The notes under the pieces: generated by a model | The model's input: only the letters and a program-made list of their open reading frames with translations | Told to the model about the DNA's origin: nothing | The model's database searches: none | Program-made: the position numbers and the translations under genes | Shown here: piece by piece, positions 1-33,007 of the stretch | How the letters are laid out: every line of letters starts with the position of its first letter | Position numbering within the stretch: position 1 is the first letter of the stretch | Assembly: GCF_023973825.1 (NCBI RefSeq) | Contig: NW_027122938.1 | Span: 1 to 33,007 of the forward strand | Direction of reading: 5' to 3' | DNA: 33,007 bases | Origin: Plasmodium brasilianum | Taxonomy: Eukaryota > Apicomplexa > Aconoidasida > Haemosporida > Plasmodiidae

Positions 1-663
1 ACACTCTCAGGTGCCTCAAGAAGGAAATCATTTATTTGCTGTTACGAAAATATGTATTTTTGCTTATTTAATATGGTTATTGTTCTACCAAGAAAATGTA
101 GGAAAATACACACATATGTATGAAACACTGTGTGGGTGTGGGGGGGGGGGAGTTTGTCCCTACTACACTACATAAGTATGTTCATATGTATGGGATTATA
201 CTTGTGCTCATACGCGTGCATACGCATGTGCTTATACATGTGTATGTTTTTTCCCGGTTAAAATGCTCGTTTATGCGCGCAAATTAAAATATACATAAAT
301 TTTTATTTACCTAATTTTTCAGTGTTCTAGTTGCAAAATATGGAATAAGGAAAATCAAGAAGACAATTTAATCGATATCCTATCTAAAGGTAGATCATTG
401 GCACTTAAGAATACATTTAAATTTGGAGGAGGTAAAGTAATGACCACCCCCTTTATGCATTCATTATATGGGGAGGTACAAGATGGGATATTAGATAACA
501 TGTACGATGGAACGCGTGATAAGTTGACTACGAAACTACTCGATGGAATGTATGATGAATGGTCCTATAAAACGTATGGAAAGTCAAATGACAAGTTACA
601 TAGTGTATTGTGTTATGCACCGAGTGAGGGGTCTAGTGTTAATCTATCGAATGTACTGAGTTA
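1..663. repeat. Terminal direct repeat, left copy
   Basis: Bases 1-663 match 32345-33007 base for base with no indel and a single substitution (G at 135, T at 32479), inside the intron of the exported-type gene next to a G homopolymer. The repeat ends exactly at both window edges, which is what a self-overlapping contig would show. Confidence 0.95.
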
Positions 664-1168
664 TGCACCGAGTGAGGGGTCTAGTGTTAATCTATCGAAT
701 GTACTGAGTTATGCACCGAGTGAGGGGTCTAGTGTTAATCTATCGAATGTACTGAGTTATGCACCGAGTGAGGGGTCTAGTGTTAATCTATCGAATGTAC
801 CGAGTTATGCACCGAGTGAGGGGTCTAGTAACGAATTGCGCAACCATAGAGATGATATAATGAACCCATTTACTGAATCGTATATAAAAAACATTAATTC
901 CATTAAAATTGATAAAATATTTAAATACACATGTGATAATATAAAAAACAAGAAGCTCTTTCGAAAAATTGTAGATAAGGCTCAACGGATATTAAATACT
1001 AAAACAATGAAAGTAATAAAATTTATTATTCCATTTATACCAGTTATTTCTATGATAACAGCAGCACTTACAACTTTGTTGTTAGGCTTAAGTCTACAGG
1101 CCATTTTCATAGCAATATTTGCCCCATTTGCATATCCGTACATTTTCATATCTTTAAGAAATAAATGA
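1..1168 (+). CDS. Plasmodium exported-type protein with 16-aa repeats (partial exon 1 and complete exon 2)
   Basis: Two-exon gene cut by the left edge. Exon 1 tail is 1-97 (codons start at base 2), a GT..AG intron spans 98-322, and exon 2 is 323-1168, all phase 0. The full exon 1 exists only at 32223-32441; with it the product would be 354 aa (73 + 281). Visible in order: a hydrophobic signal-like segment near residues 54-70 (ICIFAYLIWLLF); a Cys-rich exon 2 start (CSSC); a PEXEL-like RSLAL at about residue 97, with L instead of E/D/Q at position five; a spacer of GMYDE/NMYDG-type motifs; five 16-residue repeats (core YAPSEGSS) at 605-844; a basic Lys-rich stretch; and two C-terminal membrane segments (about residues 305-326 and 328-350). 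Stop is TGA at 1166-1168. This layout is typical of subtelomeric exported families that sit in infected-cell membranes. I do not recognise the family. Export is inferred. Confidence 0.8.
605..844 (+). repeat. Five 48-bp coding repeats (16 aa each)
   Basis: Units start at 605, 653, 701, 749 and 797. Units 2, 3 and 4 are identical in nucleotides. Unit 1 differs at its start (VLCY instead of VLSY). Unit 5 differs at its start (VPSY) and end (SSNELRN). The in-frame unit length keeps the reading frame open. Nucleotide identity of the inner units implies recent expansion or gene conversion. Confidence 0.97.
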
Positions 1169-2190
1169 AAAAAGAATGAGGAATGAAATTAAAAAATTGA
1201 GTATACAACAAGCCGTAATATAAAAGTTTTTCCTCCAAAAGTTTTGCCCACATACACATATGTGTATGGGTTATATATACATGTACGTACGCGTGTATTT
1301 GTGTATGTATGTACGTTTGTACTATACCGATATGTATATATTTTCTATGCAGTAATGGTAGTACCCCCTTTATAAGAACCTCTAAATTTGAAGTACAGTT
1401 GTGGATATGCTCAATAATTCTAATACAGTATAGCACAAAAATATATTATATATCCATGATACCATATTTATGAATGTATGAATTTTGACCCTTTTTATTT
1501 ACCTGTTGAATATATAATTACGTTAATATTATTTGTTAATATGCAATCTGTTTTAATCATACACACCAATTAATTTAAATTAACATGGCAATTGTATTGT
1601 ATGTATATGTGTATGACTGTTATGGGGAATTTCTCTCTCTTTATATTTGCTTTTTTAAAGTGGTTTATTCCTTTTTTTTTTTTTTTTTTTTTTTTTTATG
1701 TATGTAAAACGTGCATACATACATGTACATACATGAATACATATATCTATATGCACGTGTGCGCGTTTTAAAGAGCCTACTGAGTCCAGGTTTCCTTAAT
1801 TTTAAAGAATTTTATTAAAATTTATACATTACCATCTTTCATTACACATGGACATATTTTTTATTTGTCTCTTTTTGAATTAAATACTCATTTTTATTTT
1901 TTATATTTTTTTAATTTATCAAAAATATTTATTAAGCTGAATATAAAAAAGCATAATAATACATGTGTTTTAAAAAATTCAAAAATATATAAAATAAAAG
2001 TAATTTGTGCATATTCCTATTGTGCTCACAAAAATTTTACGTAAATTGTCTGTCACTGTAAGGCAAATGTGATACTCTTAAAATTTATGCAACGCGCATG
2101 TGTATGTTATATATATGCATATACTCATACATATACAAATATATATATGTATACCCATATGTATACGCATATATATACTCATACATATAT

Positions 2191-2196
<6 letters not shown>

Positions 2197-2239
<43 letters not shown>
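2197..2239. repeat. (TA)n microsatellite
   Basis: Uninterrupted alternating TA run, preceded by degenerate ATAC/ATAT repeats from about 2100. It creates spurious Tyr-Ile reading frames on both strands. Confidence 0.95.
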
Positions 2240-2243
<4 letters not shown>

Positions 2244-2523
2244 CAACTACTGCAATATAACACATGCCTTTTGACTGTTTTTTCATCCTTTGGAAATATA
2301 AACATTACAAGTATAAGATTATTTTATTTTATTTTATTATTATTTTTTTAAAAATTAATATAGTATGCAAATAATATGCATTAAATTGTTTTCTCAATTT
2401 TTGTATAATACCCAGGGAGGTAAACTTATACCAGTGGCTGTTTATTTCGCCCGTTCGTTTTGGAGTAGTAAAAATATTAGCTAACAATTATGAGAAAAAT
2501 AAAAACAAAAAAAAAAAAAAATA

Positions 2524-2574
2524 AAAACATAAAATATGAAATATAAAACATAAAATATGAAATATAAAACATAA
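2524..2574. repeat. 21-bp A/T-rich direct repeat
   Basis: A unit containing ACATAAAATATGAAATAT is repeated about 2.5 times after an A-run. No coding role seen. Confidence 0.85.
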
Positions 2575-3640
2575 CAGTCTCGATAGTTAAAAACTTTGGA
2601 GAGGTGTATATAGTATTAATATAAAATACGGAAGAAAAGGGATTTTATTTATTGAAAGTGCTTATTATTATATGGTATGAGTTATTTTGTTATTTGCATA
2701 TATATGCATATAATAAAATAAGTCTGTACACATATAAGAATATATTTTATGTGTGTATGTAGTAGAATATATTTGTGAACATAGTTCATTATCACAGGAA
2801 CATGTAATATAAATTAAAATTGCAATATGTTTTAAAATATTATGACAAAAAAAAAAAAAAAATAAATAAATAAAATAAATAATTATATAACAAAAATATG
2901 TAAAATTTAAAGGAACATAAAAATATATTTCTGTATATAATATATATATATATATATATAATATATAATACTAAAAAAAAAAAAAAAATATATTTCCATA
3001 AGAAAATATTGACTTATATTGAAAGTCTTAGTAAAACACAAAAAACAAAAAAAAAAAAGGAAACAAGAAGGGACAAAAAATGGAACAGAAACAAAATAAA
3101 AATGATGGGGAAAAAAAGCAAGATTAACAAATAGGTTTAGGGCGTAAACATACAGTTGTTGTCCTCTCTCCATCCATTGCCAATGTTATTAAGCATACTC
3201 CATATATGTATATATACAATATGTACATACGTATATGTGTGCACTTTTCGAATTTGCACTAACATGAAAATGGTACGGGGTTCGTAAGAGCTGCATAAAT
3301 TTATGTTATGCAATATGATCCCCTAATAAAAGTTTTTTGGAAAACTATATATTGTGCATTTTTCCTACTATTGATTTGTTGTGTGTTATCTATCTATCTA
3401 TCTATATATATATATTTATCCTTTTACATCTCATTATTGTTCATTCTTTAATTCGTTTAAGTATGAAATACTTTCTTTGTTCATAGGTTGACTAAATAAA
3501 TTTTCACTTTCGTTATAGTTTTCAAGTAAGTTTTTATAATTTCCCCGTTTATTTGTTGAGTATTCATCTTCTTTTCTTTCATTTTCTTCATCGCTATTGG
3601 AAGAATCATCAATGGAAGAGTCCTCCTCATCCTTGTTGCA

Positions 3641-4159
3641 TCACTGCCCATCTGTGGCCCCTTCTTCACTTACATCTTCGCTTGTACTTTCGCTTTTTTC
3701 GCTGTCTTCTTCACTTTCTTCTTCGCTGTCTTCTTCACTTTCTTCTTCGCTTTCTTCTTCGCTTTCTTCTTCACATTCCCCTTCCCCTTTTTGGTTCGCG
3801 CTTTCGTTTGGTTTTTCTGTATACAACATTTGAGCAACGCTAGGAGTTATTAATGGTTCATATACTTCCTTTAGTGGCTTACAGGGGGGTTCTTGTTGTT
3901 CATTCCTCTGCCCCCCCTGATGTTTTCCCGACGGGCTTAATCCTGAATTCTCTGGTATTTTCTGTGTTGGTATATTAGAACTCGTTCCTTGTGTATTTTT
4001 GTTTGGTAGTCCCGTGTACAACATCTGTGCAACGGTAGGAGTTATTAATGGTTCATATACATTCGGCATTTTTTTAGATGAGGTTTTATGTTGGTCATAA
4101 ATTCCTTCCCCCGCCGGTTGTTCTGATGATTCTAATTTGAATTCTGGATCTTCTTCCAT
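3641..4159 (-). pseudogene. Second readable segment of the broken exported gene (duplicated VYEPLITP motif, acidic tail)
   Basis: Same gene in the frame downstream of the A-run shift; the frame is already open from 4225. VYEPLITP-x-VAQMLYT occurs twice, near 4014-4063 and 3820-3869, separated by a Pro/Gln/Asn-rich linker. A Glu/Ser repeat (units EEES/EEDS) lies at about 3690-3780. After TGA at 3643-3641 the same frame continues for 68 codons rich in Glu, Asp, Ser and Asn. That it stays open and acidic argues it was recently coding. Confidence 0.7.
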
Positions 4160-4206
4160 TTCATATGGATTTTTTTTTTTTTTTTTTCTGTCTTTATTAC
4201 CTTTTG

Positions 4207-4710
4207 TTATATAATGGTCTGAACATTTTTTTTTTTGTTTTCTCTCGTTATGTAATTATCTGATCCTTTTTTTTTGTTTTCTCTCGTTATGTAATTATCT
4301 GATCCTTTTTTTTCGTTTTCTCTCGTTATGTAACTACCTAATGTTTCTTTTTTTATGTTATCTTTTATTAAATAGGGTGAATTCATTTTTTCTGCTTTAT
4401 CCTTAGTATCATAATTTTGAGGTTTCCATTTTTCATGATGTGTTAAATTACTATCTTTTGGACATACATAATTTTTACCCACTTTAATAGGAGAATTATG
4501 TAATTTATTTTCATTCTTATTTTTCCCTATAGAATAATTTTGAGGTTTATTTTTGTTTTTATTATTTCCTCCGGAATATGAATATCCACTGTATCCATAA
4601 GGATAATGAATGGACCTATTATTAGATTGTGTTAACACTCTTCTAGATTTTACTTCTAACATTTTTTCTGTGTGGTATTCCTTACTAGAGAGTTTGTCAC
4701 TGTATGTGCA
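4207..4710 (-). pseudogene. First readable segment of the broken exported gene (PEXEL and 13-aa repeats)
   Basis: Exon 2 from the acceptor at 4711-4712 to the frame break. The R-V-L-T-Q PEXEL is about 19 residues after the exon start, within the usual distance of the exon 1 hydrophobic segment. The 39-bp repeats code NYITREN followed by a Lys run and GSD. The copies at 4237-4330 differ mainly in A-run length, so slippage is the likely cause of the frameshift. The frame ends artificially at 4207. Confidence 0.7.
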
Positions 4711-4788
4711 CTAATAAGAGGGGGGAAAAAATATCATAATAGGACATAAGGAAAATAGTATATATGCATGTACACGCATCCGTATATA

Positions 4789-4790
<2 letters not shown>

Positions 4791-4829
<39 letters not shown>
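4791..4829. repeat. (TA)n microsatellite inside an intron
   Basis: Pure TA run within the inferred intron (4711-5018) of the broken exported gene. Confidence 0.9.
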
Positions 4830-4830
<1 letters not shown>

Positions 4831-5132
4831 TCTACATATGTGCGTTTACATCCGTATGTATATCCATTTTCACGTTAGCTCTTTTATAATGCCATATTTT
4901 AGGTGAAATGAAATATAGCCATACATACGTACATACATAAACAACTCAACAAAAGGGGAGAAGAGAGTAACTCTTATTTTTCTTTTTTATATACGTTACT
5001 TTAAATTTTAAATCGTACATTATTAAAAATATCTGATGTCCAAAAGAAAAGAGAGAACAAACATATTTTCCTAAGAAAGGGGGAAATATTGACTCTCCCC
5101 CTCGTAATATGATTTTTCTTTGAATTCGTCAT

Positions 5133-5624
5133 TTTTTCTATATTTCAAGGGTACTTATATAAGTATTTTATATGTATATATATGTATATATATGTATATA
5201 TATATATGTATATATACTCGATTGTAACTTCTGGTTGCTTATCAATATTTTCAATTAATGCATCAATCTAGTATTTTTCAAGGCTTCTGATTTATTTTTC
5301 CACATTAATATGATTTTTGTATTATTTTTAAATTACAAAAAGAAAAAAAAAAAAAATAAAATGTTCATAAATAGTTATTCATATAATGGATAATTACAAA
5401 CATATAAAATATATATATAATATAGTAAGAAATAATAAAAAATAGTATATATATATATACTTAGGTGTTTTTTTATTATATTTTGAAAATTTCAAATAAA
5501 AAATAACATCATTATTAGAACAAAAATAAGGTCATCAGCACTAAAAAAAAAAATATAAGCTTTAGAAAAGATGTAAAACAAGGCTAGCTTTTATTATTAG
5601 TACGTTTATATAGATTAAATCTGC

Positions 5625-5657
<33 letters not shown>

Positions 5658-6503
5658 GGCTCGAAAAATAGAACAAAACAAAAAAATTCGTTCAAATGTT
5701 ATAAGCGAAATGTAGGACATAAGTACATATATATATTAGGAAGAAAAAAGGGAAAAAGCCAAGTAATTTTACTGTTAAACGAAAAGGAGAATATGTTCTT
5801 AAGAAATTATATACTATCAACTCTACATATATACGAATTTAAAAAAAAAAAAAAAAATCATTGTCCCAACTAATATATATATATATCACATATATTTTTA
5901 ATAATTATTTTGTACTCATAATAGTTTAAATAATTTTAACTAAGTGCTAAATATAGAAGAAAAATGTTTAAAATATATTATTATTTATATTTATGTAACT
6001 TATAAAATAATACATCCGCATTTCAATTTAAACAAATAGTTAGATTATGAAAAAATAAGCCAAAAAAAAAAAAAAAAAAAAAAATTTTTTAAGAGTGGCA
6101 GCAGGAGTGAGTCAAACTTTTTAATAACCTTTAACCAAAAATAATAAATTTCAGTATATACAAAATATCCAATTTATTAATATTAATATTATTATTATTT
6201 ATTTACTATAATAATAATAATTACTATTATATATGTAAAAAAAAATATTCCCTTAAGGTGGTAAAAAAAGAAACTGAAAAATTGCAATGAAGAATTATAA
6301 GATTAAATAATAAAATTTTTATTATAGGTATGTATAGGATTAAAAAAAACAAAAATTCGATTCGCTTTTTTTTTTTTTTATTTTATAATTTAAAGAAATA
6401 ATATATTACATTATAGTTACAACTTTCGGAGGCACGTGGTAGCGCTACCTATGACGTACAAAATTATAGTGACTTATATATGTACATGTACATGTACATG
6501 TAC

Positions 6504-6575
<72 letters not shown>

Positions 6576-6693
6576 TTATACATAGATACATAATAATATA
6601 TATATGTATATATTAATATATGTTAACAATAAAAATTTTCATATTTTAAAGTTAATTATAAACGATAAGTAAAATGCAATACCTTTTTAATTA

Positions 6694-6725
<32 letters not shown>

Positions 6726-6765
6726 TCCTACTTCCTTTTTTATAGTACAATTTTTGATCACATAC
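5133..6765. other. A/T-rich intergenic region between divergent genes
   Basis: Upstream region of the broken exported gene (-) and of the small two-exon gene (+). It carries poly(T) at about 5631-5657, A-runs near 5841, 6062 and 6695, and the hexamer array at 6475-6572. No credible open frame seen. Promoters are expected here because genes diverge, but no specific element can be named. Confidence 0.65.
6475..6572. repeat. Hexanucleotide array (TGTACA)n then (TGTATA)n
   Basis: About 16 six-base units. The first few are TGTACA-type and the rest TGTATA-type, as if one T/C variant spread through part of the array. No coding frame. Confidence 0.95.
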
Positions 6766-7143
6766 ATGTATTTATGTTTTTTCATTCATTTATGTTGTGC
6801 CTTCAAATTCATTAAACGAAGGACAACACCTGAACACCCAAGCAAAACGTATATTGCCAAAACAAAAAATAAGACAGAATTGGGGATGTTCATTATAAAG
6901 GAGAAATTGTATTTAGTAAAATATTTATATATATATATATATATATTTTTGTTTTTTAATTTTTTGATATAATTTTATATTCATATAATATATGACTTTA
7001 TACAGGTATATTTGCAAAAATTAACTCTTCCTTTAAATGTGTACCGCGGGGATAAAGGGGAGAAAAAAGAAAAAATCTATTTTGTAAATGAAAATATTAA
7101 AAAGAAAGTAGAAAAGTTTATGAGGAAACACTTTTCCTTTTAA
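6766..7143 (+). CDS. Unrecognised small two-exon gene (95 aa, secretory or plastid-type N-terminus)
   Basis: Exon 1 is 6766-6915 (50 codons), intron 6916-7005 (GTAAAA..TACAG, 90 bp, phase 0), exon 2 7006-7143 ending TAA. Codon use and base composition are less A/T-extreme than the flanks, and both exons are free of the TA repeats that fill the intron. The N-terminus is hydrophobic and Cys-rich (MYLCFFIHLCCAF), followed by a basic stretch (KFIKRR) and a Lys-rich body ending KKKVEKFMRKHFSF. This could be a small secreted protein or a basic organellar protein such as an apicoplast or mitochondrial ribosomal component; I recognise no family. There is an acceptor-like TTTTTTATAG just upstream (6745), so another 5' exon is possible. 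Confidence 0.45.
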
Positions 7144-7927
7144 CCATCCCATTTTTCATGCTTACAAAATGAGTTACAAACACACACACAAGTTTATGTG
7201 TACATATTTATACACATATATTTATGCATTCATATATATATATAAAAATATATATGATGGTGCTAATTTTTTTCTTTATTTCCCTTTGTGCCTATTTAAA
7301 GCTTTAATTTTACTTCATGTATAACGGACATATTACATATTAGTTCTAAATACCGAGAGCGCATTATTTTTTTAAAAACATTATCCATTACTATATTATT
7401 TTAAACACTATTTTACATTCTTACCTGCACACTTGTTAGGAAAGCTTTTTTTTTCTTCGGACATTTAGTAAATTATTTAGTGGTATCATATGATAGACTT
7501 ACTACTAATGTGAAAATTAAACAAAATAAGGTGGTATTATAAAACTATTTAATATGATGATGACGCAACATAAATTTTATACATTTTATAAAAAAAAAAA
7601 AAAAAATAATAATAAAAATAAAGATAAGATAAAGATAAAGATAAAAATAAAAAGGTTTTTCATATATTGAGGTTTAATAGAATAAAATTTTTCTTTTCTC
7701 TCATTTCATATATGTAGCAGAGTGATAAAACAGCAGACATGTTTGAAATATTAGTCAAATGACGATAAAATTTCAGTTATATAAATAATTTCGTACAAAA
7801 AAATGTTTGTAACGCAGTTGTTTTAGTAGTATAATTAAGGCAATTATATAGTAGGTACAACCATAGTTTCGAGAACGGTTCGCACACGTATATACATTAT
7901 ATAATGCACATACATATTATACATATT

Positions 7928-7960
<33 letters not shown>

Positions 7961-8029
7961 CACGCATGTACACATATAGTACGTTCGCATGTTTTGCTAA
8001 AGTACAATGTTAATCATCATACTGTAAGC

Positions 8030-8080
<51 letters not shown>

Positions 8081-8417
8081 CCCTTAACAATAAAAATATG
8101 AACAAAATAGTAGCTACAAAAAAAAAAAAAAAAAAAAATTATAAAACACAAACAGTACACAGTATTATTAAAAACAAATAAAAAATATATGAAAATGTAT
8201 TAATAAGCAAATAAGTTAATGAAAAAAATATAACTTACGCGCATACATTATTATATATAAGAAAAGACGAAAAAAATTGAATTAAAATTAATCAAAACCA
8301 TAATAACAAATTATGAATAATGCAGAAATAATTGCTATTTACAACAATTTAAAATATACATTAAACGTACAGATATTAATTCGTAAACGAGCACATATAC
8401 GTACATACATACATACG

Positions 8418-8482
<65 letters not shown>

Positions 8483-9091
8483 GTATGCATATATTCATGA
8501 CAAGCATGCGTGTTTATAGGGAGGGGAGAGGCTCCAGAAATATAAAGAACATCGATGGAAAAACAGCTTAATCATAATTTTGATAACTATTATATGCATG
8601 AGTGCACAAAATAATCAATTAGGGAAATAAGTACCGTGAAGAGAAAAATCTTTTGTCGTGTGTTATTATCGTTACTAATATGTACACAATGCTTCTGGTT
8701 AAGTGTATTTCGCTTTTTTGTTTTTCTAATTTGTTTTTCCTATTTGTATTTGTATTTGTATTTGATTTTTTAGTACACGTCGTACTTGTACATCATAGTT
8801 CGCGTATGCAAGTGAAGTTGAGAAAGCAAAAATCAGTTTTTGTAAAACTCGCATATAAACATATATGCGCATATTTTAAACAATAAAAAAATTCTAGGTT
8901 CAAAAAAATTATAGATTATACGATTTAATCATATAAATAAATAGTGAAAGACAACAGTATACCACTATTTTTTTTTACTATTAAAAATTAAAAAAAAAAA
9001 AAAAAAAAGGTGCCATGTTGAACAAACGCTAGTTAAATGCAAATATATGTAACACATAAATACACACATCGTGCATATAATAAATTAATAA

Positions 9092-9122
<31 letters not shown>

Positions 9123-9680
9123 AATGTACTTTAAAAAAAATGACGTGATATATTAAGTTTTTATGCACGCTTTATTAATAAGAGCTGAACACATTTAATA
9201 AAATTAATTTAGTACGTAAAAATACTATTTCAATTATTAAAAATTTTCGCACTTCGTAATAATGTATCATTATAATTTGCTGCCTCTTTGGTTGCACTTC
9301 GATTTTCTTTTTTTTTTATTTTTAAACATATATATGTAAAATACTCTTTTTGAGCTGTTCACCATGATATTTCAAAAAAAAAAAAAAAAAAAAAAAAATA
9401 GCTAACTGAAAAAAGGAATAGTGCTAGATGTTTGAAAGTACGTATTTGATGGTATATAACTGATGGTACAGAAGTGATAGTATATATTTAACGGTCAATT
9501 AATAATGGTTCATAATATAGTTGATAATAAATAACAGACAAATAATATAGTTGATCGCTGCTGATAGTAAACAAATAATATTTTTAAATTGTTGATTGCT
9601 GTCCATGTTGTAGAGTATAATATATTTTATAATAGTTGGAGAGGAAGAAGAAAAAATTAACAGATTAATTTTTTATGGTT
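7144..9680. other. Intergenic region with dense microsatellites
   Basis: Between the small two-exon gene and the 3' end of the tryptophan-rich antigen gene. It holds (TA)n at about 7935-7960 and 8046-8076, a (CATA)n/(TA)n array at 8402-8486, and A-runs near 8030, 8119, 8992 and 9375. The open stretch 8653-8886 is mostly a GTATTT repeat and is not accepted as a gene. The bases at 9420-9660 hold short GATGGTATATA-like direct repeats in the probable 3' UTR of the antigen gene. Confidence 0.65.
8402..8486. repeat. (CATA)n followed by (TA)n
   Basis: About eleven CATA units with one G variant, then a TA run. Simple-sequence repeat with no coding role. Confidence 0.93.
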
Positions 9681-11195: not shown

Positions 11196-11349
11196 GATTT
11201 CTTGATTTTTTTTCTTCTTTTTAAAATAGTAAATTAAAATATTTAAATAAATCCAAATTCTGTATTAACTGTTTCATGCACACATATCTAAACATATGCT
11301 TATGCATATAAATATATACTATGACAAGTTTAACGTCAATTCGAGTTCC

Positions 11350-22155: not shown

Positions 22156-23231
22156 ATGAACAAATTTTTTAAGAAAATTACTTGCTGCTGTATGTCTATA
22201 TTATATATAAGCATTACCAACAACAAGGTAATACTTGCATATATTCTAAAATGATTTTTAAATTTGAACAGTTATGTTATGTAACATAGAAATGCGGAAG
22301 GGTGGATAAGGTAAATAATTTACATCTTAACGGTACACATATATAAAATAGCTATGGATGCAATTACAGATATGATATAAAAGTGCAACTTTTGGCGTGT
22401 GGCATGTAATATGATAAAATGGAAAGAATAAAATAGTTTTATGCAAAGTAGAGAGTATGAAATGAAAGTATTTAGTAATCGAATACCCTAATTATGAAAA
22501 GAGGGAAAATGAAGCTCTTATTTAGTATCAAAAAACATCTATCTATTGGTTGTAATAAATAAATAATTGAGCTTTTCACATTTCATATTTTCCATAAAAC
22601 GAGGATTAAAAATACATGAGTACATAATATCTGTAGCATATGGTAACGATAAATAAGCGTTTAAAATTATAATTAAAATAAAAAAAAGCGTAATGAAAGT
22701 AATGAAAATATTTTTGTTATAATATTGCACTTAGAAAAATGTTTACTCGTATCATATACTCATTTAGGTGGACATACACAATTCACACCATCCACACTAT
22801 CTTTGGGATATGGGTAATTATGGTATAAGGTTCGGAAAAATATAAAAATTGGGATCGTAAATGTAATATATGAATTTTTTAAGGTACACATTTTTTTTTG
22901 TTCTAGTTTTTACTGTACTTAATGTACCCTTAACTTTTTTTTTTTTTTTTTTTTTTTTTAATTAGGAAGCTTCCCTTGGATCACTGTCATTAAATAAAAC
23001 AGGAAAGCGACAAAAAAAAAATTTTTAAAGAATGATTATTCATATATATATGTACATGTACATGTATGTAGGTGTATGTTCCTGTATGCACGTGCAAGTA
23101 CTCCTGTTAGTACGAATAATCTATATAAGGGAGAGATTATTAAGAAAGCCCATAAAATTTATTTGGCAAATTTGGATATGATCGCGAAATCAAATAAAAA
23201 GCCAAGGCATGCAAAGTTCATCAGGTGTTAA
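22156..23231 (+). pseudogene. Possible decayed two-exon secreted or exported gene
   Basis: Candidate exon 1 is 22156-22227 (24 codons): basic start MNKFFKK, hydrophobic core ITCCCMSILYISI and the NN-K end before donor GTAATA, phase 0, like the other exported genes here. A candidate exon 2 follows an acceptor TTAATTAG at 22965: it reads EASLGSLSLNKTGKRQKK, hits a 10-A run (23012-23021), and only in the shifted frame continues open through STNNLYKGEIIKKAHKIY to a TAA at 23229-23231. The reading therefore needs one indel in the A-run and a 738-bp intron, longer than its neighbours. The pieces look coding; the joining is uncertain. Confidence 0.35.
22539..22730 (-). other. Possible signal-like open frame on the minus strand
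   Basis: 63 codons with a strong hydrophobic core (FITFITLFFILIIILNAYL) near the N-terminus, followed by a mixed stretch with three cysteines. It lies inside the inferred long intron of the plus-strand candidate gene. It could be an orphan exon 1, but no second exon follows on the minus strand. Confidence 0.2.
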
Positions 23232-23312
23232 GCTCCCCCCATAAAAATACAATATTTGGCTAAATAATAATATACCAGTATACAAGGTAAAAATGAAATG
23301 AAATATTCGTAA

Positions 23313-23516
23313 ATGCACGTCCGGCCGAAATGTTATGATAAAATGAAATTACGAATGTACACACTACAAAGACGTGAAAACTTATACAAAAATGAACAAC
23401 AATTACTAGGAAAAAACGTATATAGTGATAAAAATAGACAAATGGGATTAATGCATTTGTGTGTGCTACAAAAATTAATGAACATGAAAAAAGAAAAAAG
23501 AAATTTTGAATAAAAT
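23313..23516 (+). CDS. Short basic open frame, unrecognised
   Basis: ATG to TAA, 66-67 codons, Lys/Arg/Met-rich, reading like real protein (KMKLRMYTLQRRENLYKNEQ) with no simple repeat. It could be an exon of the decayed gene upstream or a separate fragment. No signal, PEXEL or membrane segment. Not recognised. Confidence 0.3.
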
Positions 23517-23850
23517 GTTGTCTATTTTTTTAATTTGTTAAAATTAAAAATAATAAATTTAAAAAAGGAAAATGATATCAATTAATTTATGGCAAAAGAT
23601 AATTAATATTCTCACGTTTCATCAGTAATGTTTGTTCTTACAATATAAAAATTTTGAGTAAAATAAATATATTTATTTTTAACCAAATGGGCACGTACAT
23701 CATTATGCTTCATTTAAAAAGGGAAAAAAAAAATAAAAATAAATAAATAGTAAAATAAATATAAACAATAAGAAAAACTACAATAGTTTAAACATCAATA
23801 AGGTTAAAATCAATGAAGTAAACATGAACATAGCGAGCAGGAATAACACG

Positions 23851-24120
23851 AACAACAATAATATGAACGATAATAAAATAAACAGAAATAATATGAACGG
23901 CAATAAAATAAACAGAAATAATATGAACGGCAATAAAATAAACAGAAATAATATGAACGGCAATAAAATAAACAGAAATAATATGAACGGCAATAAAATA
24001 AACAGAAATAATAGGAACGGCAATAAAATAAACAGAAATAATAGGAACGGCAATAAAATAAACAGAAATAATAGGAACGGCAATAAAATAAACAGAAATA
24101 ATAGGAACGCGAACAAAGGT
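23851..24120 (+). repeat. 30-bp minisatellite, nine units, open in several frames
   Basis: Units start every 30 bases from 23851. The plus-strand translation is an Asn-rich ten-residue unit (NRNNMNGNKI). Units before 24001 carry ATG and those after carry AGG at the same place, so the array has two homogenised blocks. The unit has no stop in three minus-strand frames or this plus frame. A plus-strand open frame (23824-24135) begins MNIASRNN and ends NKGWNKP. A low-complexity protein is possible, but there is no signal or other domain. Confidence 0.9.
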
Positions 24121-24781
24121 TGGAATAAACCTTAACGAGGAGCAAAACGTTAAGTGCAAAATTTAAGGAGCACTTTATAAATGTTCTTAATGCAGAACAA
24201 TAAAAAAAGAGCTATTTATTTTTTGAAAGGGAAATATATAAATTCACGTATATTAATTGTACTTCCACAGATTAATTAAAAGATGTGAAAAATCATCAAT
24301 TTTAACACACATATACACAAACATACACACACTTATGTATAAATAAATAAATATATATACATGTATATACATATGCATACGACGTGAAAAGGAAAAACGA
24401 AATAATTTTAATAAAAAAAGCTTTTTCTTAAAAATATTTGAAAAAAAATTAATAATATAATGAATTAATTCAAATATAAATGATATAATTATTGTATGGA
24501 GTAAAAAAAAAAAAAAAACAAAAGGATAAAACAAAATAAAAGCGTCTTTATTTTCCTATGTTGAAAAATTAAAAGGCATTCAATTCTGGAATCATACATT
24601 CTGCATACATGCATAAACATAAATTTCGAATACATACATGTCCTTCCTTTATCGCTACACTGTGAACAATTTTAAAATTTCTCTACTTAATACTTCAAAA
24701 TTTAACGATTTGCAAGCTAACGATTTGCAAGCTAACGATTTGCAAGCTCAGAGTTACATATACCTGGCACTGTTATATTTT
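24121..24781. other. Intergenic region with three 15-bp repeats
   Basis: Probable 3' flank of the minus-strand gene that ends at 24782. Three exact copies of AACGATTTGCAAGCT lie at 24704-24748. Short CA/TA repeats occur at 24305-24380. Nothing else supportable. Confidence 0.6.
24704..24748. repeat. Three perfect 15-bp repeats
   Basis: AACGATTTGCAAGCT three times in tandem, less than 60 bases beyond the stop of the minus-strand exported-type gene, probably in its 3' UTR. The reverse complement is AGCTTGCAAATCGTT. Confidence 0.93.
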
Positions 24782-26390
24782 TTAAAGGACATTACTTATA
24801 TTACGACTCTTTGCATTATTATAAATTTTATTAACTTTATAAAGTTTATGCGAAAGGTAAATTATCATTATATATGTAATAAAATATAATGGAAGTGCTA
24901 AAGAAATATAATTTTTTGCAGCAAATATAAATACAAGCAAGGTGTTTATAATGAGTGGCATAAAGATTTTAAGTCTGTTCATAAATCCTGTTAATTTGTT
25001 TCCTGTACCTCCTCTTCTATTCACTAAATTGCTACTCTTATTTTCTGGTGCAAATGCATTAAATATTTTTAACTCGATGCTTTTATCAAATTCTTTTAAA
25101 AATTTCATGAATTTGGAAAATGAATTATTTTTTTTTCTATATCTCTTTATCTCAACATAAAATTTTGGTTTTCTTACTTTATGTGGTACTTCATTATAAT
25201 TTTCTTTTTTTAGAAAATCAATTACTAGTTCAAAATTATCTCGTAATTGGGATGAATAAAATTCCTTATTAATGTCATCATAATCTCTTAAAACTTCTAT
25301 TAGTTTCACAAATCTGTTATTATTCTTTAAGGTATTAACTCTCTTATCATTATTTTCTATATAATTTGTTAAATCGAACCCCTTTACAGACCTTCTATCA
25401 TCATCTTTTAAACCATCATACCATCGTTGAAACGTTTCTAAATGATCTGTTAAATTATCTCCCTTTTCAAATTTCCTACCCTCATTTTTCAAGGCATCAT
25501 ATCCTTTTCCTGTATTTACTAAATAGTTTACAGAATCAGACAAAGCATAAGTTTTATTACCACAATTTTTTGTATTATCAGACCCTTTTCCTACATTTAC
25601 TAAACAATTTATAGAATCAGACACAGAATTATCTCTAGAACTATCATATTTTGTAGCATCTGAAGCTTTTCCTGCATCTACTAAGCAGTTTATAGAATCT
25701 GACACAGAATTATCTCTAGAATCATCATATTTTGTAGCATCTGGAGCTTTACCTGCATTTACTAAACAGTTTACAGAATCAGACATATCATTAACTTTAG
25801 TACTATCATTTTTTGTATTATTAGTCCCCTTTCCTGCACTTACTAAACAATTTACCGAATTATACCATGATTTAAATTTACTATTATCGTATATTAAAGC
25901 GGCATGCATTTGTTCAGAATTTTCTCTCTGCTTTAACCCATTAAATTTTTTTTTTAAATTATTATTTTTGGCAATATCAAAATTACATCGATTTGTTTTT
26001 TTACTGACATAAACGTCATTGTTATTATTACTATAATGATTATTATTACTATAATGATTATAATTACTATAATGATTATTATTACTATAATGATTATTAT
26101 TACTATGTTTGTTATTATCGTAATTATAATTATTACTATAATTATTATTGCGTGTTAATATATTTTTCCTTTGTTGAAAATTATCATTATGTTTGTTTGA
26201 TGAATTCACATAATAGGATTTTACTGGTCCATAATTTGGTTGTACCAATAATTCTGTCTGTCCAACTAGTAACCTACTACATCTTACATTATTAACATTA
26301 TTATTTGTGTTGCCAGATTTATTCCATGACTTTCTATCACTAGTGGCCTAAATGTTCAGATAAAAAATTCAAATATATTTATTTAAAATA

Positions 26391-26428
<38 letters not shown>

Positions 26429-26636
26429 AAACAGTTCTATAAATTTACGAAAAAATATATTTTTTTAAAATATATTCATCGAGCAAATTAACAAACAGGG
26501 ATATAATTAAATAAAAAAAAAAAAAAAAAAACCTCTACTGTAATTATTTTTAATATTATACATTGTTGGAAATGTGCCACGCTTTAACTAACAGGGTAAA
26601 CGTTAAAATGTTAATAAAATACCTTAACATGTTCAT
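24782..26636 (-). CDS. Two-exon exported-type protein with NNNHYS and 27-aa repeats (546 aa)
   Basis: Exon 1 is 26636-26562 (25 codons, MNM start, hydrophobic INILTFTLLV, ends SNN before donor GTATAA). The intron is 26561-26348 (ends TTTAG). Exon 2 is 26347-24782, phase 0, stop TAA. Exon 2 has SRLLVGQTE (R-x-L, with G at position five, so only PEXEL-like) about 24 residues in, an Asn/Tyr/His-rich tract with NNNHYS units, five 27-residue repeats with core NCLV-x-AGK, a basic globular region with several Trp/Tyr (QRWYDGLKDDDRR), and two C-terminal membrane segments (about residues 486-503 and 505-525) followed by a short basic tail. The exon 1 start could also be Met3. No frame break seen. Likely secreted and exported by the blood-stage parasite; family and function not recognised. 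Confidence 0.85.
25451..25852 (-). repeat. Five 81-bp repeats encoding 27 aa
   Basis: Units begin at NCLV (or NYLV in the last). The core is N-C-L-V-(N/S/D)-x-G-K followed by a T-K-x-D stretch and ending SDS(I/V). Units 2 and 3 are most alike. Each of the first four has one cysteine, replaced by Tyr in the fifth. The Cys is spaced exactly 27 residues, which could allow regular disulfides or ligand sites. Confidence 0.92.
26030..26105 (-). repeat. 18-bp repeats encoding NNNHYS
   Basis: Four to five near-identical units in exon 2 of the 546-aa gene, one with Tyr for Asn. An Asn-rich low-complexity tract common in Plasmodium proteins. Confidence 0.92.
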
Positions 26637-27530
26637 ATTTTTTTTAATGGAATATATTCAAAAATTTGCTAATATTTTTGCAACACAAATATATATTCAC
26701 GTACATCTGTATATGCACATACGTACAAGTACATCAATATATATATATATATATATGTAAGTACATGCCACTTTTAGATTTATATAATATTTCAAAGATC
26801 TTCGAAATATTGTAGTTTTTCCCTATACTATTTTACTTCTTCAAAAATTAAAAATATTTTTCTCTTTTTTGGTTTAAATAAAAATATAATAAAATGTTTT
26901 CTATTATAATGGAAACAATGAATGAAAAATAAAAAATATATTTACACTAAATTATTACATATTATATAATAAGTATAAATACGTATAAATACGTATAAAT
27001 ATATATATAAATACTTATAAATATATAAATACATATATATACATACGATGTATATAAATATTTACATCGACATTAATGTACATTAATAAACTAAATTAAT
27101 TTTAAAATTTAAGGAAGTTAGGGAATTAGGAATTAAAATAATTGTCGAATTATTGCAAGGTGTTAAAGAAAATCAACTTTCCAATAATTTGATAATAGTA
27201 AATTTTGGCATGTACATATATATGTATTTAATGAATGGAGCAATATGTTTAAATAAAGAAATACATGCATTTTATTATAATATACAGTATTTAGAGTAAT
27301 ACATAAATTATAAAAGAAAAGAAAATACAATTTTTTGAAAATGCATTTTATTTGTTTTACTTATGGAGCACTCAAACATAGTAAATAATTTTTTAAAAAA
27401 TAATGGTATTTTTTATTATAACCCTTATTTTTGTCGTGTAATTTTTTTCCTTTTTTTTTTTTTTTTTTTATAAACGTATATTTTCACTATTATTATCTTA
27501 ATAACTACCAGTAATGTTATTAATGCATAT

Positions 27531-27570
<40 letters not shown>

Positions 27571-28165
27571 TTATACGTATGTAAAAAATATAGCGCACTT
27601 ATGAATTGCCATATCTTGAACTATAAATGCACGACTGCATGAAAACTTAGTAAATTTTTTTAGTTAATTTGAATCATTAAATGCTGTGAAAAAAATATAA
27701 AAATTAATTAAAATATACCTTCTTTTAAAATTCTACATTTTGTGAAACATAAAACTTATGAGTGCATTTTTTTTTTTTTTTTTAACAATTATATATATCT
27801 ACATAGGTATATATAATATATATATACACTCTCTTTTTCAAAAACAGAAATTTTTAAAATTTAAAAATGTATGTGTATAATTGTATAAATGTATATATAA
27901 TGAAAAAAAAAAATTATATTATAAAATAATAAAAATAGAATATTACTGCATCACTACATCATTGTTTTATTGTGTTATTATGCATGTATAATTTTTTACA
28001 TTTTTTTAGAGATAAGGAAAAGGAAAAAAAAAAAAAAAAAAGAACGTAAAGGTCTAGAAAGAAAAAAATCTTTTTAATTTTCTCATTTAAAATTTTTTAA
28101 TAATATATAAAGGTACCAAATATAACTATATATATAAATGTAAATATATATGTAGATATATTTAT
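26637..28165. other. A/T-rich upstream region
   Basis: 5' flank of the 546-aa gene. It carries (TA)n at about 26741-26757 and 27536-27566, an ATAAATACGTATAAATAC-type repeat near 26968-27020, and poly(T) at about 27452-27470 and 27770-27783. No coding segment seen on either strand. Confidence 0.65.
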
Positions 28166-28264
28166 TTATTTATTTATATTTTTAGCTAATAAATAAGAAT
28201 TGCCATTGTAAAGTTGTGCTACCATTTTATTCATCTCAGCTGAAACTGTTTTAAAATTGAACAT
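28166..28264 (-). pseudogene. Possible terminal exon fragment
   Basis: 33 codons ending TAA: MFNFKTVSAEMNKMVAQLYN and a short tail. Composition is more protein-like than the flanks. It may be the remnant end of the gene suggested by the other minus-strand fragments at 28.7-30.6 kb. Weak on its own. Confidence 0.2.
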
Positions 28265-28682
28265 TAATAATATAATTTTTTTTTAAGAAAAAAAAAAAGG
28301 TATTTCCCGTCAAATATTTGTTATAATTTTATGCGTACATGTAGCTATATACATATATATATTATTATATATAAATTTTAATCTTATAATTTTTTTTTTT
28401 TTTTTTTTATATATATATAGATATAGATATCTATATCTATATATATCTAGATTTATATATATTTTAGAATATAAACTTAAAAATTATGTACTACTAAAAT
28501 ATATAAATATTTATAAAGTACATGATAAATTACGTTAAGCATGCATTAAAAGTACAAAACTAGAGTGATCGCGTTCTTGTACTTATTTTTTGTACAGCCA
28601 TTTTTCAGAATATTCCATAATTTCAATTTTTATTCATACATATAAATATATATTATAATAAGAACACTCACCAATATTATGA

Positions 28683-28730
28683 TTATTGTTAGAAGTAGTG
28701 GTAGTACGATTATTATCTTAATCCAATTTC
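28683..28730 (-). pseudogene. Possible transmembrane-exon remnant
   Basis: A minus-strand stretch encodes KIIIVLPLLLTIIIIL followed by a donor-like GTGAGT (near 28680). A membrane segment ended by a donor is typical of the penultimate exon in Plasmodium surface multigene families, but a stop lies a few codons upstream and no family can be assigned. Confidence 0.25.
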
Positions 28731-29281
28731 AATTCACTGAACTAGTAAGTATTATATTTTATCCCGGTAAAGTTTATAGGGATTAACAATAATATAACTT
28801 CTGCATCATAATGTATTAAATTGGTATGGGCTGCTATGTATATTATGTACAAAATTAAAAATAGTAAGACTTTTTTTTTTAAAATAATATTATTATATTT
28901 TTATGGAGTTTTACAAATATGAAAATTAAGAATCTTTAACGTATTTCTGATACGCACATTTATATATTATTATTATATATGGCGTGGAAAAAGGAAAAAA
29001 TATAATGGTATACAATATATATATATATATATATAATATTATAAAAAGTAGTGGAAATTATTTTATTTTGTTTTATTTTTTTTATTAATCATATTTTATA
29101 TTATTTACTTAAGAGAACATGTTCGCCTCTTTACTCTTGAATTACATTTGTTTATCGTACTAATAATTTATCGAATTACTACATATAATGGCAGTAATTA
29201 TATTTTTAAATTTTTGAAAATTCGTACAAAGGTTAGAGTTACTGGATTATTAGTTTGTACGTTTTATACATAATTAATTTA

Positions 29282-29500
29282 TCAGGTGTGTTTTTTTTTT
29301 TCTAGTTCTTTTTCTTTTTCTATTTCTTTTTCAATTTCTTTTTCAATTTCTTTTTCTATTTCTTTTTCAATTTCTTTTTCTATTTTGTTTTCAATTTCTT
29401 TTTCAATTTCTTTTTCTATTTCGTTTTCTATTTCGTTTTCTATTTCGTTTTCTATTTCGTTTTCTATTTCTTTTTTTATTTTCCATTTTTTTTTTTTTTT
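29282..29500 (-). pseudogene. Glu/Ile/Lys repeat tract open on the minus strand
   Basis: A 12-bp unit repeats about 14 times. On the minus strand it reads E-I-E-K or E-I-E-N continuously and ends KEKELEKKKHT then TGA. Acidic-basic helical repeats of this kind are common in exported Plasmodium proteins. No in-frame start was found upstream (a T-run precedes), so it may be an exon of a decayed gene or only simple sequence. The plus-strand reading (Phe-Ser-Ile-Ser) is a shadow. Confidence 0.35.
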
Positions 29501-29813
29501 TATTAGCCAATTTTAGAATATTCCTTTTAATCTACTATTTGGTGTAGTAAAATACACTTCAGCTTTTTCCTTATTTTTCATTTAAAATGAAGTTAACAAA
29601 AAAAAGGAAGAAATTTTTAAAAATAGAATAACAGTTCTGTGTAAATAAATTATACTGTAATTACAGTCGTCTTTAAAAAGTTGAACCTCCTGGAGAAAAA
29701 GGAAAAACGATATACATATATATATACATATATATATAAACACATATATGCAAATGTGTACTTTAAATGTGCTAATATTTTATTATTATTTTTTGGAGCA
29801 ATATCATATGTGC

Positions 29814-29815
<2 letters not shown>

Positions 29816-29862
<47 letters not shown>
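29816..29862. repeat. (TA)n microsatellite
   Basis: Long pure TA run between minisatellite-bearing segments. Confidence 0.93.
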
Positions 29863-30139
29863 GTGAATACGCGTTATAAAGTATAAATAAAAACAATAGT
29901 ATTATTTTTATTTTAAAAGTATATATATAAAAAATAAAATTTCCATGTTATATTATATGGTATTTTAACACTATTTTATATTTTGATTGAACATCAAACA
30001 TAAGTAAATAACAGTAATGATAATTTAATAAACTCAAAAGAAATAAAATAGTCTATGTTGCTATGTGTAATAAGTGAATGTACTTTAAAGAGGCTTTTTG
30101 ACAAATCAGAGGGGTTAAGGTACATGATTATTTTTTATC

Positions 30140-30270
30140 TTTTATTCTCTTTTATTTTGTATCTTTTATTATCTTTTATTTTTTATCTTTTATTATCTTT
30201 TATTTTGTATCTTTTATTATCTTTTATTTTTTATCTTTTATTATCTTTTATTATGTATCTTTTATTTTTT
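30140..30270. repeat. 24-bp minisatellite
   Basis: Units of ATTATCTTTTATTTT(T/G)TATCTTTT repeat about five times. It is stopped in all three minus frames and gives only Leu/Phe/Tyr on the plus strand. Noncoding. Confidence 0.9.
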
Positions 30271-30401
30271 ATCTTTTATCTTCTATTTTTAATTTTTAAT
30301 TTCATCTTTTGAAAACAATTTTATTCGTTTATCCGTGTATTGCTGTGCTCCGGTAGTATTTTTTTCATTGCAAAGACCATAATTATTAAATGTTAAATGC
30401 T

Positions 30402-30608
30402 CTAACAAAATACTAAGGAGTATTGTCGATCTAGTTTTTGTTCTGTTGTAAAAAAAAGTTTTACTTCACGTAGTATTTCGTTCTGTACTTCAACTTGTTT
30501 GTTCTGTTCGTTTGATGTTGCATTTTTTTGCGCTTTCATTATTTCACTTTTACGGCATATATCGTTAATTAATTTTTTCCGTTCTTCATGCTTATGTTTT
30601 TCATAATC
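30402..30608 (-). pseudogene. Charged coding-like fragment after an in-frame TGA
   Basis: 68 codons plus TAG on the minus strand. It is highly charged and helical (KHKHEERKKLINDICRK, NKQVEVQNEILREVKLF) and free of repeats, so it is very likely to have been coding. The frame is interrupted upstream by TGA at 30611-30609, beyond which it stays open for about 20 more codons. With the other minus-strand pieces to the left it may be part of one decayed exported or surface-protein gene. Family not recognised. Confidence 0.45.
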
Positions 30609-31326
30609 TCATATGAAGTTATCATTCGTTTTTGTAAAATAAAATGATAAAATTAATGATGAAAAATAATAAGTTTAATAGCTATTTTTTTTTTTTTTTT
30701 TTTTTTTTTTAAACAAACATAAATAATTACTACATTTTTACTAATCACAATTTTGGCAATACGATGACATTTATATTTGGCCCATATATTATTACAGTAT
30801 TCAAAAAAAAAAAAAAAAAAAAAAAATGCAATTTATTAATATATTAATGCATTTTGTGTTTTTGATTAGTTAAACTACTGCCCAAGATTTGTTTGAATTG
30901 TATATATATGTATAAATGTACATATGTATATACGTGTATATTGGTGAATATACTATATTATATGTTCTTCCAACTGAATAAAATATTTGTACTTTAAATT
31001 TTACAACATTGCAAATGTTTTTTTTTCGTTTTTTTTCGTTTTTTACTTTTATTTTATTTCTAATTTTGTTTTATTTCTAATTTTGTTTTATTTTCTTTCT
31101 ACTATTCTTGTTATAAAAAAATGAATATACATTATTCATTAAGCACTACAACGGAACGAAACTTTTTGTGAAGTCACAATGGAGCACTGTCATTTGTATA
31201 ATTTTAAAGAATTCTTTAATTTTGGATTCTTTTTTATGTTCATTTAAATATTTTTTATGCGTTTGTTCTGTTCTGTTCTGTTCTGTTCTGGTCTGCTCTG
31301 GTCTGTTCTTTTGTTCTCTTGTTCTT

Positions 31327-31440
31327 TTATTTTATTTTTGTTTATTTTATTTTATTTTTGTTTATTTTATTTTATTTTTGTTTATTTTATTTTATTTTTG
31401 TTTATTTTATTTTATTTTTGTTTATTTTATTTTATTTTAT
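31327..31440. repeat. 20-bp T-rich minisatellite
   Basis: Five near-perfect copies of TTTATTTTTGTTTATTTTAT. Preceded by a GTTCT pentamer run (31263-31312). Noncoding. Confidence 0.93.
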
Positions 31441-31539
31441 TCTATTTTGTTTTTTTTTTGTTGGAAAGAAGAGCATTATTATGACGATGAGATGAGTCTG
31501 AATTATATGTATCACCACGTTCATTAGAAAAATAGATAA

Positions 31540-31735
31540 AAATATAAATAAAAAAAAATATAAAAATATAATTGAATAAATAAAAATATAACTCAATAAA
31601 TAAAAATATAACTGAATAATTAAAAATATAAATGAATAAATATAAAAATATAATTTAATAATTAAAAATATAAAAATATAACTGAATAATTAAAAATATA
31701 AAAATATAACTGAATAAATATAAATGAATAAATGA
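31540..31735. repeat. 20-bp A-rich minisatellite
   Basis: Degenerate copies of ATAACTGAATAAATAAAAAT with insertions. A-rich strand, opposite in bias to the T-rich array just before it. Confidence 0.85.
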
Positions 31736-32222
31736 ATATATATATATATATATATATATGCGCACGTAATATTCGTACTTCTGCAAAAGTACATATTTAA
31801 CGCACGAATACCTTTGTGGTTTAGCTTTGATTAGTGAATATATTTTACGTATTCATATAATTTATCATATTATTATAAAAACTTCAAAATAATGCGTTTT
31901 ATTAGGATTTGATTTTAAGCGATTCTTTCCATTTTTACAGCGTGGGATTTACTCTTTTATATATATATATATATATATACATATATTTTTGTTTATTTAT
32001 TAGCATTTATATATAGTTATCAACTTTGGTTATACAACTATGCGCATATGTACATATGTTAATACATATATACATGTGTACATGTGTACGTGTATGTATA
32101 GACGTACGTACAGAAAAAAGCAGTGTGTACCTTTAAATTATTAAATATGATATGAAAAGATCAAATGCGTCTGCCTTCATATTTTAAATTACACGTTTTT
32201 AATTCTGAAAAAAATAAAAAAA

Positions 32223-33007
32223 ATGATAAGGAAAAATAGTATCATCATGACTTCATCATATATTGATTCTACATATCATACAGGGGAGGATGATGAAAAT
32301 AAAGGTTTGAATCCCATAGATGATTTTAAGACTATTTCATTTGAACACTCTCAGGTGCCTCAAGAAGGAAATCATTTATTTGCTGTTACGAAAATATGTA
32401 TTTTTGCTTATTTAATATGGTTATTGTTCTACCAAGAAAATGTAGGAAAATACACACATATGTATGAAACACTGTGTGTGTGTGGGGGGGGGGGAGTTTG
32501 TCCCTACTACACTACATAAGTATGTTCATATGTATGGGATTATACTTGTGCTCATACGCGTGCATACGCATGTGCTTATACATGTGTATGTTTTTTCCCG
32601 GTTAAAATGCTCGTTTATGCGCGCAAATTAAAATATACATAAATTTTTATTTACCTAATTTTTCAGTGTTCTAGTTGCAAAATATGGAATAAGGAAAATC
32701 AAGAAGACAATTTAATCGATATCCTATCTAAAGGTAGATCATTGGCACTTAAGAATACATTTAAATTTGGAGGAGGTAAAGTAATGACCACCCCCTTTAT
32801 GCATTCATTATATGGGGAGGTACAAGATGGGATATTAGATAACATGTACGATGGAACGCGTGATAAGTTGACTACGAAACTACTCGATGGAATGTATGAT
32901 GAATGGTCCTATAAAACGTATGGAAAGTCAAATGACAAGTTACATAGTGTATTGTGTTATGCACCGAGTGAGGGGTCTAGTGTTAATCTATCGAATGTAC
33001 TGAGTTA
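32223..33007 (+). CDS. Second copy of the 16-aa-repeat exported-type gene (5' part, truncated by window end)
   Basis: Exon 1 is 32223-32441 (73 codons, ATG to ..YQEN), with donor GTAGGA. The intron is 32442-32666 and exon 2 runs from 32667 to the window end, where it is cut inside the second 16-residue repeat. From 32345 on it matches bases 1-663 with one mismatch. Exon 1 encodes a polar, acidic N-terminus of about 50 residues, then a recessed hydrophobic segment. That is the usual exon 1 of PEXEL-type exported proteins, which enter the ER without a classical N-terminal signal peptide. The upstream bases 32100-32222 are unique in the window. This is either the same locus seen twice by an overlapping or circular contig, or a true second gene copy. 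A methionine nine codons in (IIMTSS) is an alternative start. Confidence 0.8.
32345..33007. repeat. Terminal direct repeat, right copy
   Basis: Right copy of the 663-bp terminal repeat. The offset between copies is 32,344 bp. The match reaches the last base of the window, so the true extent of homology may be larger. Confidence 0.95.

What the first reader, a model, noticed from the sequence alone, without database searches (positions are those of the whole stretch)
1..33007. The window closes on itself: 663-bp terminal repeat, period 32,344 bp
Bases 1-663 equal 32345-33007 with one mismatch (135 vs 32479) and no indel, and the match ends exactly at both window edges. A two-exon gene is split so that exon 1 is complete only on the right and exon 2 only on the left. 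Closing the circle yields one intact 354-aa gene. Options: a self-overlapping assembly of a repeated subtelomere, a real extrachromosomal circle, or a tandem duplication of at least 32 kb.
Basis: partly seen in the sequence, partly recalled or inferred. Interest (0 to 1): 0.75.

Follow-up and report, generated by a model that had tools for sequence, protein, structure and literature searches.

The report
Contig folded on an unresolved repeat
This malaria-parasite contig seems to close into a circle because both of its ends lie in the same 8.8-kb stretch, which also sits on a chromosome-sized contig; most likely it is a 32-kb piece that the assembly left out of that chromosome, not a free circle.

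Summary
In detail: the window is the whole contig C31, and bases 1-663 equal 32345-33007 with one mismatch. The circle does not follow. An 8.8-kb segment, "W", runs across the supposed junction and is also present, linear and uninterrupted, on the 1.24-Mb contig C2 (179,749-188,586, about 99.7% identical). C31 is a 23.5-kb segment "Z" with part of W on each side. The arms (4,249 + 5,240 bp) exceed W (8,826 bp) by exactly 663 bp, so the terminal repeat is leftover overlap. C2 and C31 part at poly-T tracts at both ends of W. At W|Z a gene keeps a PEXEL-like motif and a candidate first exon; at W|Y on C2 these are missing. The simplest chromosome is X-W-Z-W'-Y, with W' a recent direct duplicate; C2 would then lack 32,344 bp and C31 is the orphan. 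Four of four other unplaced-contig ends searched (of 56) also end inside near-identical repeats. A circle popped out by W x W' recombination would give the same two contigs; it is not excluded, but nothing requires it. Size and contig count match the published Plasmodium brasilianum assembly. Reads, depth and an optical map were not available.

The parts
1..663 (+). left copy of the terminal overlap
   Evidence: one mismatch (135) against 32345-33007
32345..33007 (+). right copy of the terminal overlap
1..4249 (+). left arm: 3' part of segment W, colinear with C2:184003-179749 (minus); the exact edge lies between 4226 and 4249
27768..33007 (+). right arm: 5' part of segment W plus the 663-bp excess, colinear with C2:188586-183341 (minus)
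4250..27767 (+). segment Z, 23,518 bp; flanked by W on both sides in C31, absent from C2:110001-250000
   Evidence: whole-genome searches are inconclusive for a second copy
4226..4236 (+). T11 tract at the W|Z boundary; C2 has T17 here and then Y
27767..27783 (+). T17 tract at the Z|W boundary; C2 has T16 here, preceded by X
32223..32441 (+). exon 1 (354-aa model) of the gene split by the contig ends; an unsplit copy is on C2
   Evidence: coordinates mapped from C2
323..1168 (+). exon 2 of the same gene; 48-bp tandem units at 604-829
3641..4710 (-). exon 2 (two overlapping frames) of a gene with a PEXEL-like motif that crosses the W|Z boundary; the first ~460 b lie in Z; the frame changes at the poly-A tract (4226-4236); on C2 the part beyond W is missing
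5004..5132 (-). [not shown]
   Evidence: splice sites not tested
9681..10760 (-). tryptophan-threonine-rich antigen gene (PF12319) in Z
24782..26347 (-). 521-aa open frame near the right end of Z, no homologue found at E <= 0.001; candidate exon 1 in the frame 26556-26657

Best explanation
C31 is the middle of a chromosomal segment bounded by two direct copies of an 8.8-kb repeat, W and W'. The likely chromosome is X-W-Z-W'-Y. W' would be a recent duplicate of W, pasted 23.5 kb away through poly-T tracts at both ends. The assembly joined X-W to W'-Y across the repeat (contig C2) and left Z, with about half a repeat on each side, as an unplaced contig (C31). Because the two arms are together longer than the repeat, they overlap by 663 bp and the contig seems circular. 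Shown: the shared segment, its boundaries, the arithmetic, the beheaded gene on C2. Inferred: that both W copies lie on one chromosome, the order of events, and the assembler step that caused it.
For: (1) W spans the supposed junction as linear sequence on C2:179749-188586. (2) Arms 4249 + 5240 - W 8826 = 663. (3) Long matches to W were found at two places only, C31 and C2 (only the best candidates are scored). (4) Both boundaries lie at T tracts of 11-17; 2.6% of the window and 2.8% of 140 kb of C2 lie in A/T tracts of 11 or more. (5) In Z the minus-strand gene has the first ~460 b of exon 2 with a PEXEL-like motif (RVLTQ) and a candidate exon 1; on C2 these are missing. X|W lies 69 bp before a candidate exon 1 of a gene whose next open frame scores 75 bits to Pfam Wx5_PLAF3D7, a PHIST-type domain by recall. 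So X-W-Z looks original and W' derived. (6) 4 of 4 other unplaced-contig ends searched match another contig at about 100% over 2.5 kb (two of the four were chosen knowing of a shared end, two not). [quoted passage not shown]
Against: No reads, depth or optical map could be seen. 0 of 28 other unplaced contigs show a head-to-tail self-overlap, so C31 is unusual within its class. The paper states that alignments to P. [quoted passage not shown]). The Z|Y junction that the model requires before the duplication is not in the sequence seen. W/W' differences are few (8 mismatches, 11 gaps outside the breakpoint tract) and could be polishing errors, so two real copies are likely but not proven. A second copy of Z elsewhere is not excluded.
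Confidence: 0.66

Rival explanations
1. A real 32,344-bp extrachromosomal circle (W-Z), for example popped out of X-W-Z-W'-Y by recombination between W and W', leaving X-W-Y on the chromosome.
For: Such a pop-out would give exactly the two contigs seen: C2 = X-W-Y and C31 = closed W-Z. Extrachromosomal DNA is reported in P. falciparum: putatively circular, var-enriched DNA (PMC9915586, abstract and passages) and dhodh amplicons (PMC8246734, passages).
Against: The overlap and the intact gene are already explained by the linear copy on C2. Nothing in the sequence tells a circle from a chromosomal loop, and it needs an additional molecule.
Confidence: 0.08
2. A tandem array: the chromosome holds the W-Z unit more than once before W'-Y, X-[W-Z]n-W'-Y with n of 2 or more.
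For: C31 would be the collapsed unit of such an array; n cannot be read from an assembly.
Against: No positive evidence for n above 1. No second copy of Z in the 242 kb of fetched sequence; the whole-genome searches with Z are inconclusive.
Confidence: 0.11
3. Assembly error with only one W in the genome: false joins at poly-T tracts made W|Y on C2, or Z|W on C31, or both.
For: Both boundaries are homopolymer tracts, where short reads fail. The two copies differ by few changes, many of them short indels as left by uncorrected long reads.
Against: It needs two separate false joins at the two ends of the same segment; one duplication explains both. Five mismatches and eight gaps in the right arm, some outside homopolymers, favour two copies.
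Confidence: 0.1
4. [not shown]
For: Z holds 3.4 kb of degenerate arrays (14.0-17.5 kb), and weakly similar arrays occur on other contigs.
Against: The arrays are mostly 60-85% alike internally, so a false join there has no obvious cause.
Confidence: 0.05

Closest known systems
Unplaced contig ending inside an unresolved repeat (loop in an assembly graph)
   Same: Both ends in a near-identical segment that is also on a chromosome-sized contig; a middle part not found there; other unplaced contigs of the same assembly also end in repeats.
   Different: Here both ends lie in the same repeat in direct orientation, so the ends overlap each other, which none of the 28 others was seen to do.
Plasmodium copy-number duplications with breakpoints in A/T homopolymer tracts (PMC4760083, one passage citing Nair 2007 and Guler 2013)
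   Same: Boundaries of the duplicated 8.8-kb segment are T11-T17 tracts.
   Different: The copy seems to lie 23.5 kb away, not adjacent; no link to drug selection is known.
Extrachromosomal DNA of P. falciparum (PMC9915586, PMC8246734; passages)
   Same: A circle carrying antigen-type genes would have the geometry seen.
   Different: No read, depth or exonuclease evidence here; another species; the geometry has a linear explanation.

Membership tests
contig ending in an unresolved repeat | both contig ends occur, near-identical, elsewhere in the assembly | tested here: met
contig ending in an unresolved repeat | terminal overlap equals the sum of the arms minus the repeat length | tested here: met
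   4249 + 5240 - 8826 = 663; true by construction once the colinearity holds
contig ending in an unresolved repeat | same behaviour in other unplaced contigs of the assembly | tested here: met
   4 of 4 ends searched (of 56) match other contigs; 11 of 29 unplaced contigs, C31 included, share 150 nt or more between ends
contig ending in an unresolved repeat | reads entering W from X leave into Z | not testable with these tools
   no reads held
segmental duplication with A/T-tract breakpoints | two copies of one segment with different flanks | tested here: met
segmental duplication with A/T-tract breakpoints | breakpoints in A/T homopolymers | tested here: met
   T16/T17 and T11/T17; random pairs of sites share 11 or more identical nt in 86 of 200,000 draws
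segmental duplication with A/T-tract breakpoints | two physical copies in one genome, by read depth | not testable with these tools
   no reads held
extrachromosomal circular DNA | sequence closes on itself | tested here: met
   but the linear C2 copy explains it as well
extrachromosomal circular DNA | resistance to exonuclease, or reads longer than the unit that go round | not testable with these tools
   needs DNA or raw reads
tandem duplication of a 32-kb unit | the whole unit (W and Z) present at least twice | tested here: inconclusive
   no second long copy of Z listed, but these did not list C31 itself; 16001-17499 not searched; a shorter repeat search did not complete; none in 242 kb fetched; a collapsed array would look the same

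The most novel reading that the evidence does not exclude
A 32.3-kb circle carrying a tryptophan-rich antigen gene and further genes of the exported-protein type exists beside the chromosome in this parasite line. It would form and re-integrate by recombination between the direct repeats W and W', so that the chromosome forms X-W-Y and X-W-Z-W'-Y interconvert in one population.
Probability: 0.07. Interest if true: 0.6.

Novelty: new member of a known kind. Interest (0 to 1): 0.22.

Why it matters
It gives an orphan 33-kb contig a likely place with a testable prediction: C2 is short by 32,344 bp at about 183-184 kb. It warns against reading a self-overlapping contig as a circle before searching the rest of the assembly for the overlap. 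It also offers a candidate recent duplication in a monkey malaria parasite with poly-T breakpoints of the kind described for P. falciparum, and a direct-repeat pair that could loop out 32 kb.

Tried and rejected
Rejected: chance similarity. A telomere end: GGGTTYA or its complement occurs at six scattered places in the window. A known RNA or a tRNA: no Rfam family at gathering score and no tRNA by ARAGORN. A third long copy of W: none listed.

Led nowhere or weak: searches with 10 kb of Y (C2:170001-180000) and 10 kb of X (C2:190001-200000) listed, besides the W edge on C31, only matches of about 125-180 nt; like (queries of 10-12 kb) they did not list the query's own place, so a long second copy of Z, X or Y may go unreported there. 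I tried to settle this for Z with a shorter query, but the tool did not complete (with waits); a local BLAST of Z against the 242 kb fetched (74 loci) gave no match at 1e-10. Protein search with the 521-aa frame found nothing at E <= 0.001. The search with exon 2 of the split gene gave two proteins: one from a contig of C2's length, and an 88% identical 303-aa protein on a 2,499-bp contig with three instead of five repeat units. Paper searches on genomes, breakpoints and circles (listings only, apart from the four papers opened) showed no title or abstract start about circles in P. malariae or P. brasilianum; this is no proof of absence. The Pfam matches of the split gene are below their curated cut-offs and are ignored.

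Limits: no reads, depth, optical map or P. malariae genome were available. The other 28 unplaced contigs were compared only over their first 1,000 and last 2,500 bases, so longer self-overlaps could be missed.

Full report
Observation. The window is the complete contig C31 (33,007 b) of a 31,374,054-base, 43-contig genome. Bases 1-663 and 32345-33007 match with one mismatch and no indel.

Where it comes from (inference). Base composition (23% GC), a Plasmodium tryptophan-threonine-rich antigen domain (PF12319, 216 bits) and, on C2, Wx5_PLAF3D7 and PRESAN domains place it in Plasmodium. Total size and contig count fit the published P. brasilianum assembly, 31.4 Mb with 14 chromosomes and 29 unplaced contigs (PMC9671904, abstract and passages).

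The overlap is not private to C31. The same 663 bases occur once on C2, a 1.24-Mb contig. Alignment shows that C31:27768-33007 equals C2:188586-183341 and C31:1-4249 equals C2:184003-179749, both on the minus strand and colinear. So one segment, W (8,838 b on C2, 8,826 on C31), crosses the supposed circle junction as ordinary linear sequence. Beyond W the contigs differ: C2 has X and Y, C31 has Z on both sides. No third long copy of W was listed. For Z (4000-16000 and 17500-28500) no long match outside W was listed either, but those two searches did not list C31 itself, so they do not settle the copy number of Z; a shorter query could not be run, and 242 kb of fetched sequence holds no match to Z.

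Why the ends overlap. C31 carries 4,249 b of W on the left and 5,240 on the right. Their sum exceeds W by 663. This is what happens when a piece is extended from both sides into the same repeat a little more than half its length.

Control within the assembly. I compared the first 1,000 and last 2,500 bases of the other 28 unplaced contigs: 0 of 28 overlap themselves head to tail, while 11 of 29 (C31 included) share at least 150 nt between ends, their own or another's. Searching four ends (of 56) against the whole genome, 4 of 4 matched another contig at about 100% over 2.5 kb: C21 on C8 and C2, C35 on C20, C34 on C43, C28 on C24. C28 and C35 were already known to share an end; C21 and C34 were not. 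Ending in a near-identical repeat is thus common here; ending twice in the same one was seen only in C31.

Boundaries. At X|W (C2) there is T16 and at Z|W (C31) T17, followed by the same sequence; at W|Z (C31) T11 and at W|Y (C2) T17, preceded by the same sequence. A/T tracts of 11 or more hold 2.6% of the window and 2.8% of the 140 kb of C2. Random pairs of sites share 11 or more identical bases in 86 of 200,000 draws. A passage in PMC4760083 says that P. [quoted passage not shown]

Are there two real copies? Differences between C31 and C2 along W: in the right arm five mismatches and eight gaps; in the left arm, before the breakpoint tract, the contig-end mismatch at 135, two microsatellite mismatches and three gaps. 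Some are outside long homopolymers, which favours two copies, but uncorrected long-read errors could produce them.

How the assembly could do this (inference). [quoted passage not shown] malariae (passages). Merging an X-W contig with a W'-Y contig by their shared repeat would drop one W and Z and leave C31 unplaced. The paper names PB02 among five chromosomes not near telomere-to-telomere; that C2 is PB02 is assumed from its number. The same paper reports no structural differences from P. malariae (data not shown), which speaks mildly against a large omitted insertion, unless P. malariae has the same arrangement or the comparison was made on the shortened chromosome.

Circle. Recombination between W and W' in X-W-Z-W'-Y would yield X-W-Y plus a 32,344-b circle, exactly the two contigs. 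Putatively circular DNA rich in var genes, and amplicon-derived extrachromosomal DNA, are described in P. falciparum (PMC9915586 and PMC8246734, passages). The sequence cannot decide; I give the circle 0.07-0.08.

Verdict. A true observation with an ordinary cause: a contig folded on an unresolved repeat. The residual interest is the recent poly-T-bounded duplication and a concrete, checkable correction to the assembly.

Noticed in passing
window 14044-17497: About 3.4 kb of degenerate TTTAGG/TTTAGA-like arrays with unit lengths of 6-72 b, interrupted, weakly similar to arrays on other contigs; not canonical telomere repeat.
   Followed up: partly
window 604-829: 48-bp (16-aa) tandem units in exon 2 of the split gene; an 88% identical 303-aa homologue on an unnamed 2,499-bp contig has three repeat units instead of five.
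   Followed up: partly
window 4207-4255 (minus): Two overlapping open frames of one gene meet at a poly-A tract, so the frame changes there.
   Followed up: no
window 23857-24109 and 25494-25860: A 30-bp array (8.4 copies, 98% matches), and an 81-bp array (4.5 copies) inside the 521-aa open frame.
   Followed up: no
L045, L077, L078, L079 (C38, C39, C40): These small unplaced contigs share 99-100% identical stretches of about 0.4-1.5 kb, partly inverted; the start of C38 has a bacterial-type LSU rRNA match: perhaps redundant organelle fragments among the unplaced contigs.
   Followed up: partly
L061 (C21 end), L074 (C35 end), L073 (C34 end), L068 (C28 end): About 100% identical 2.5-kb stretches on other contigs (C8 and C2; C20; C43; C24): more unresolved repeats or recent duplications.
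   Followed up: partly
The genome search: Queries of 10-12 kb did not list their own place, while queries up to 4.7 kb did; absence claims from long queries are weak.
   Followed up: partly
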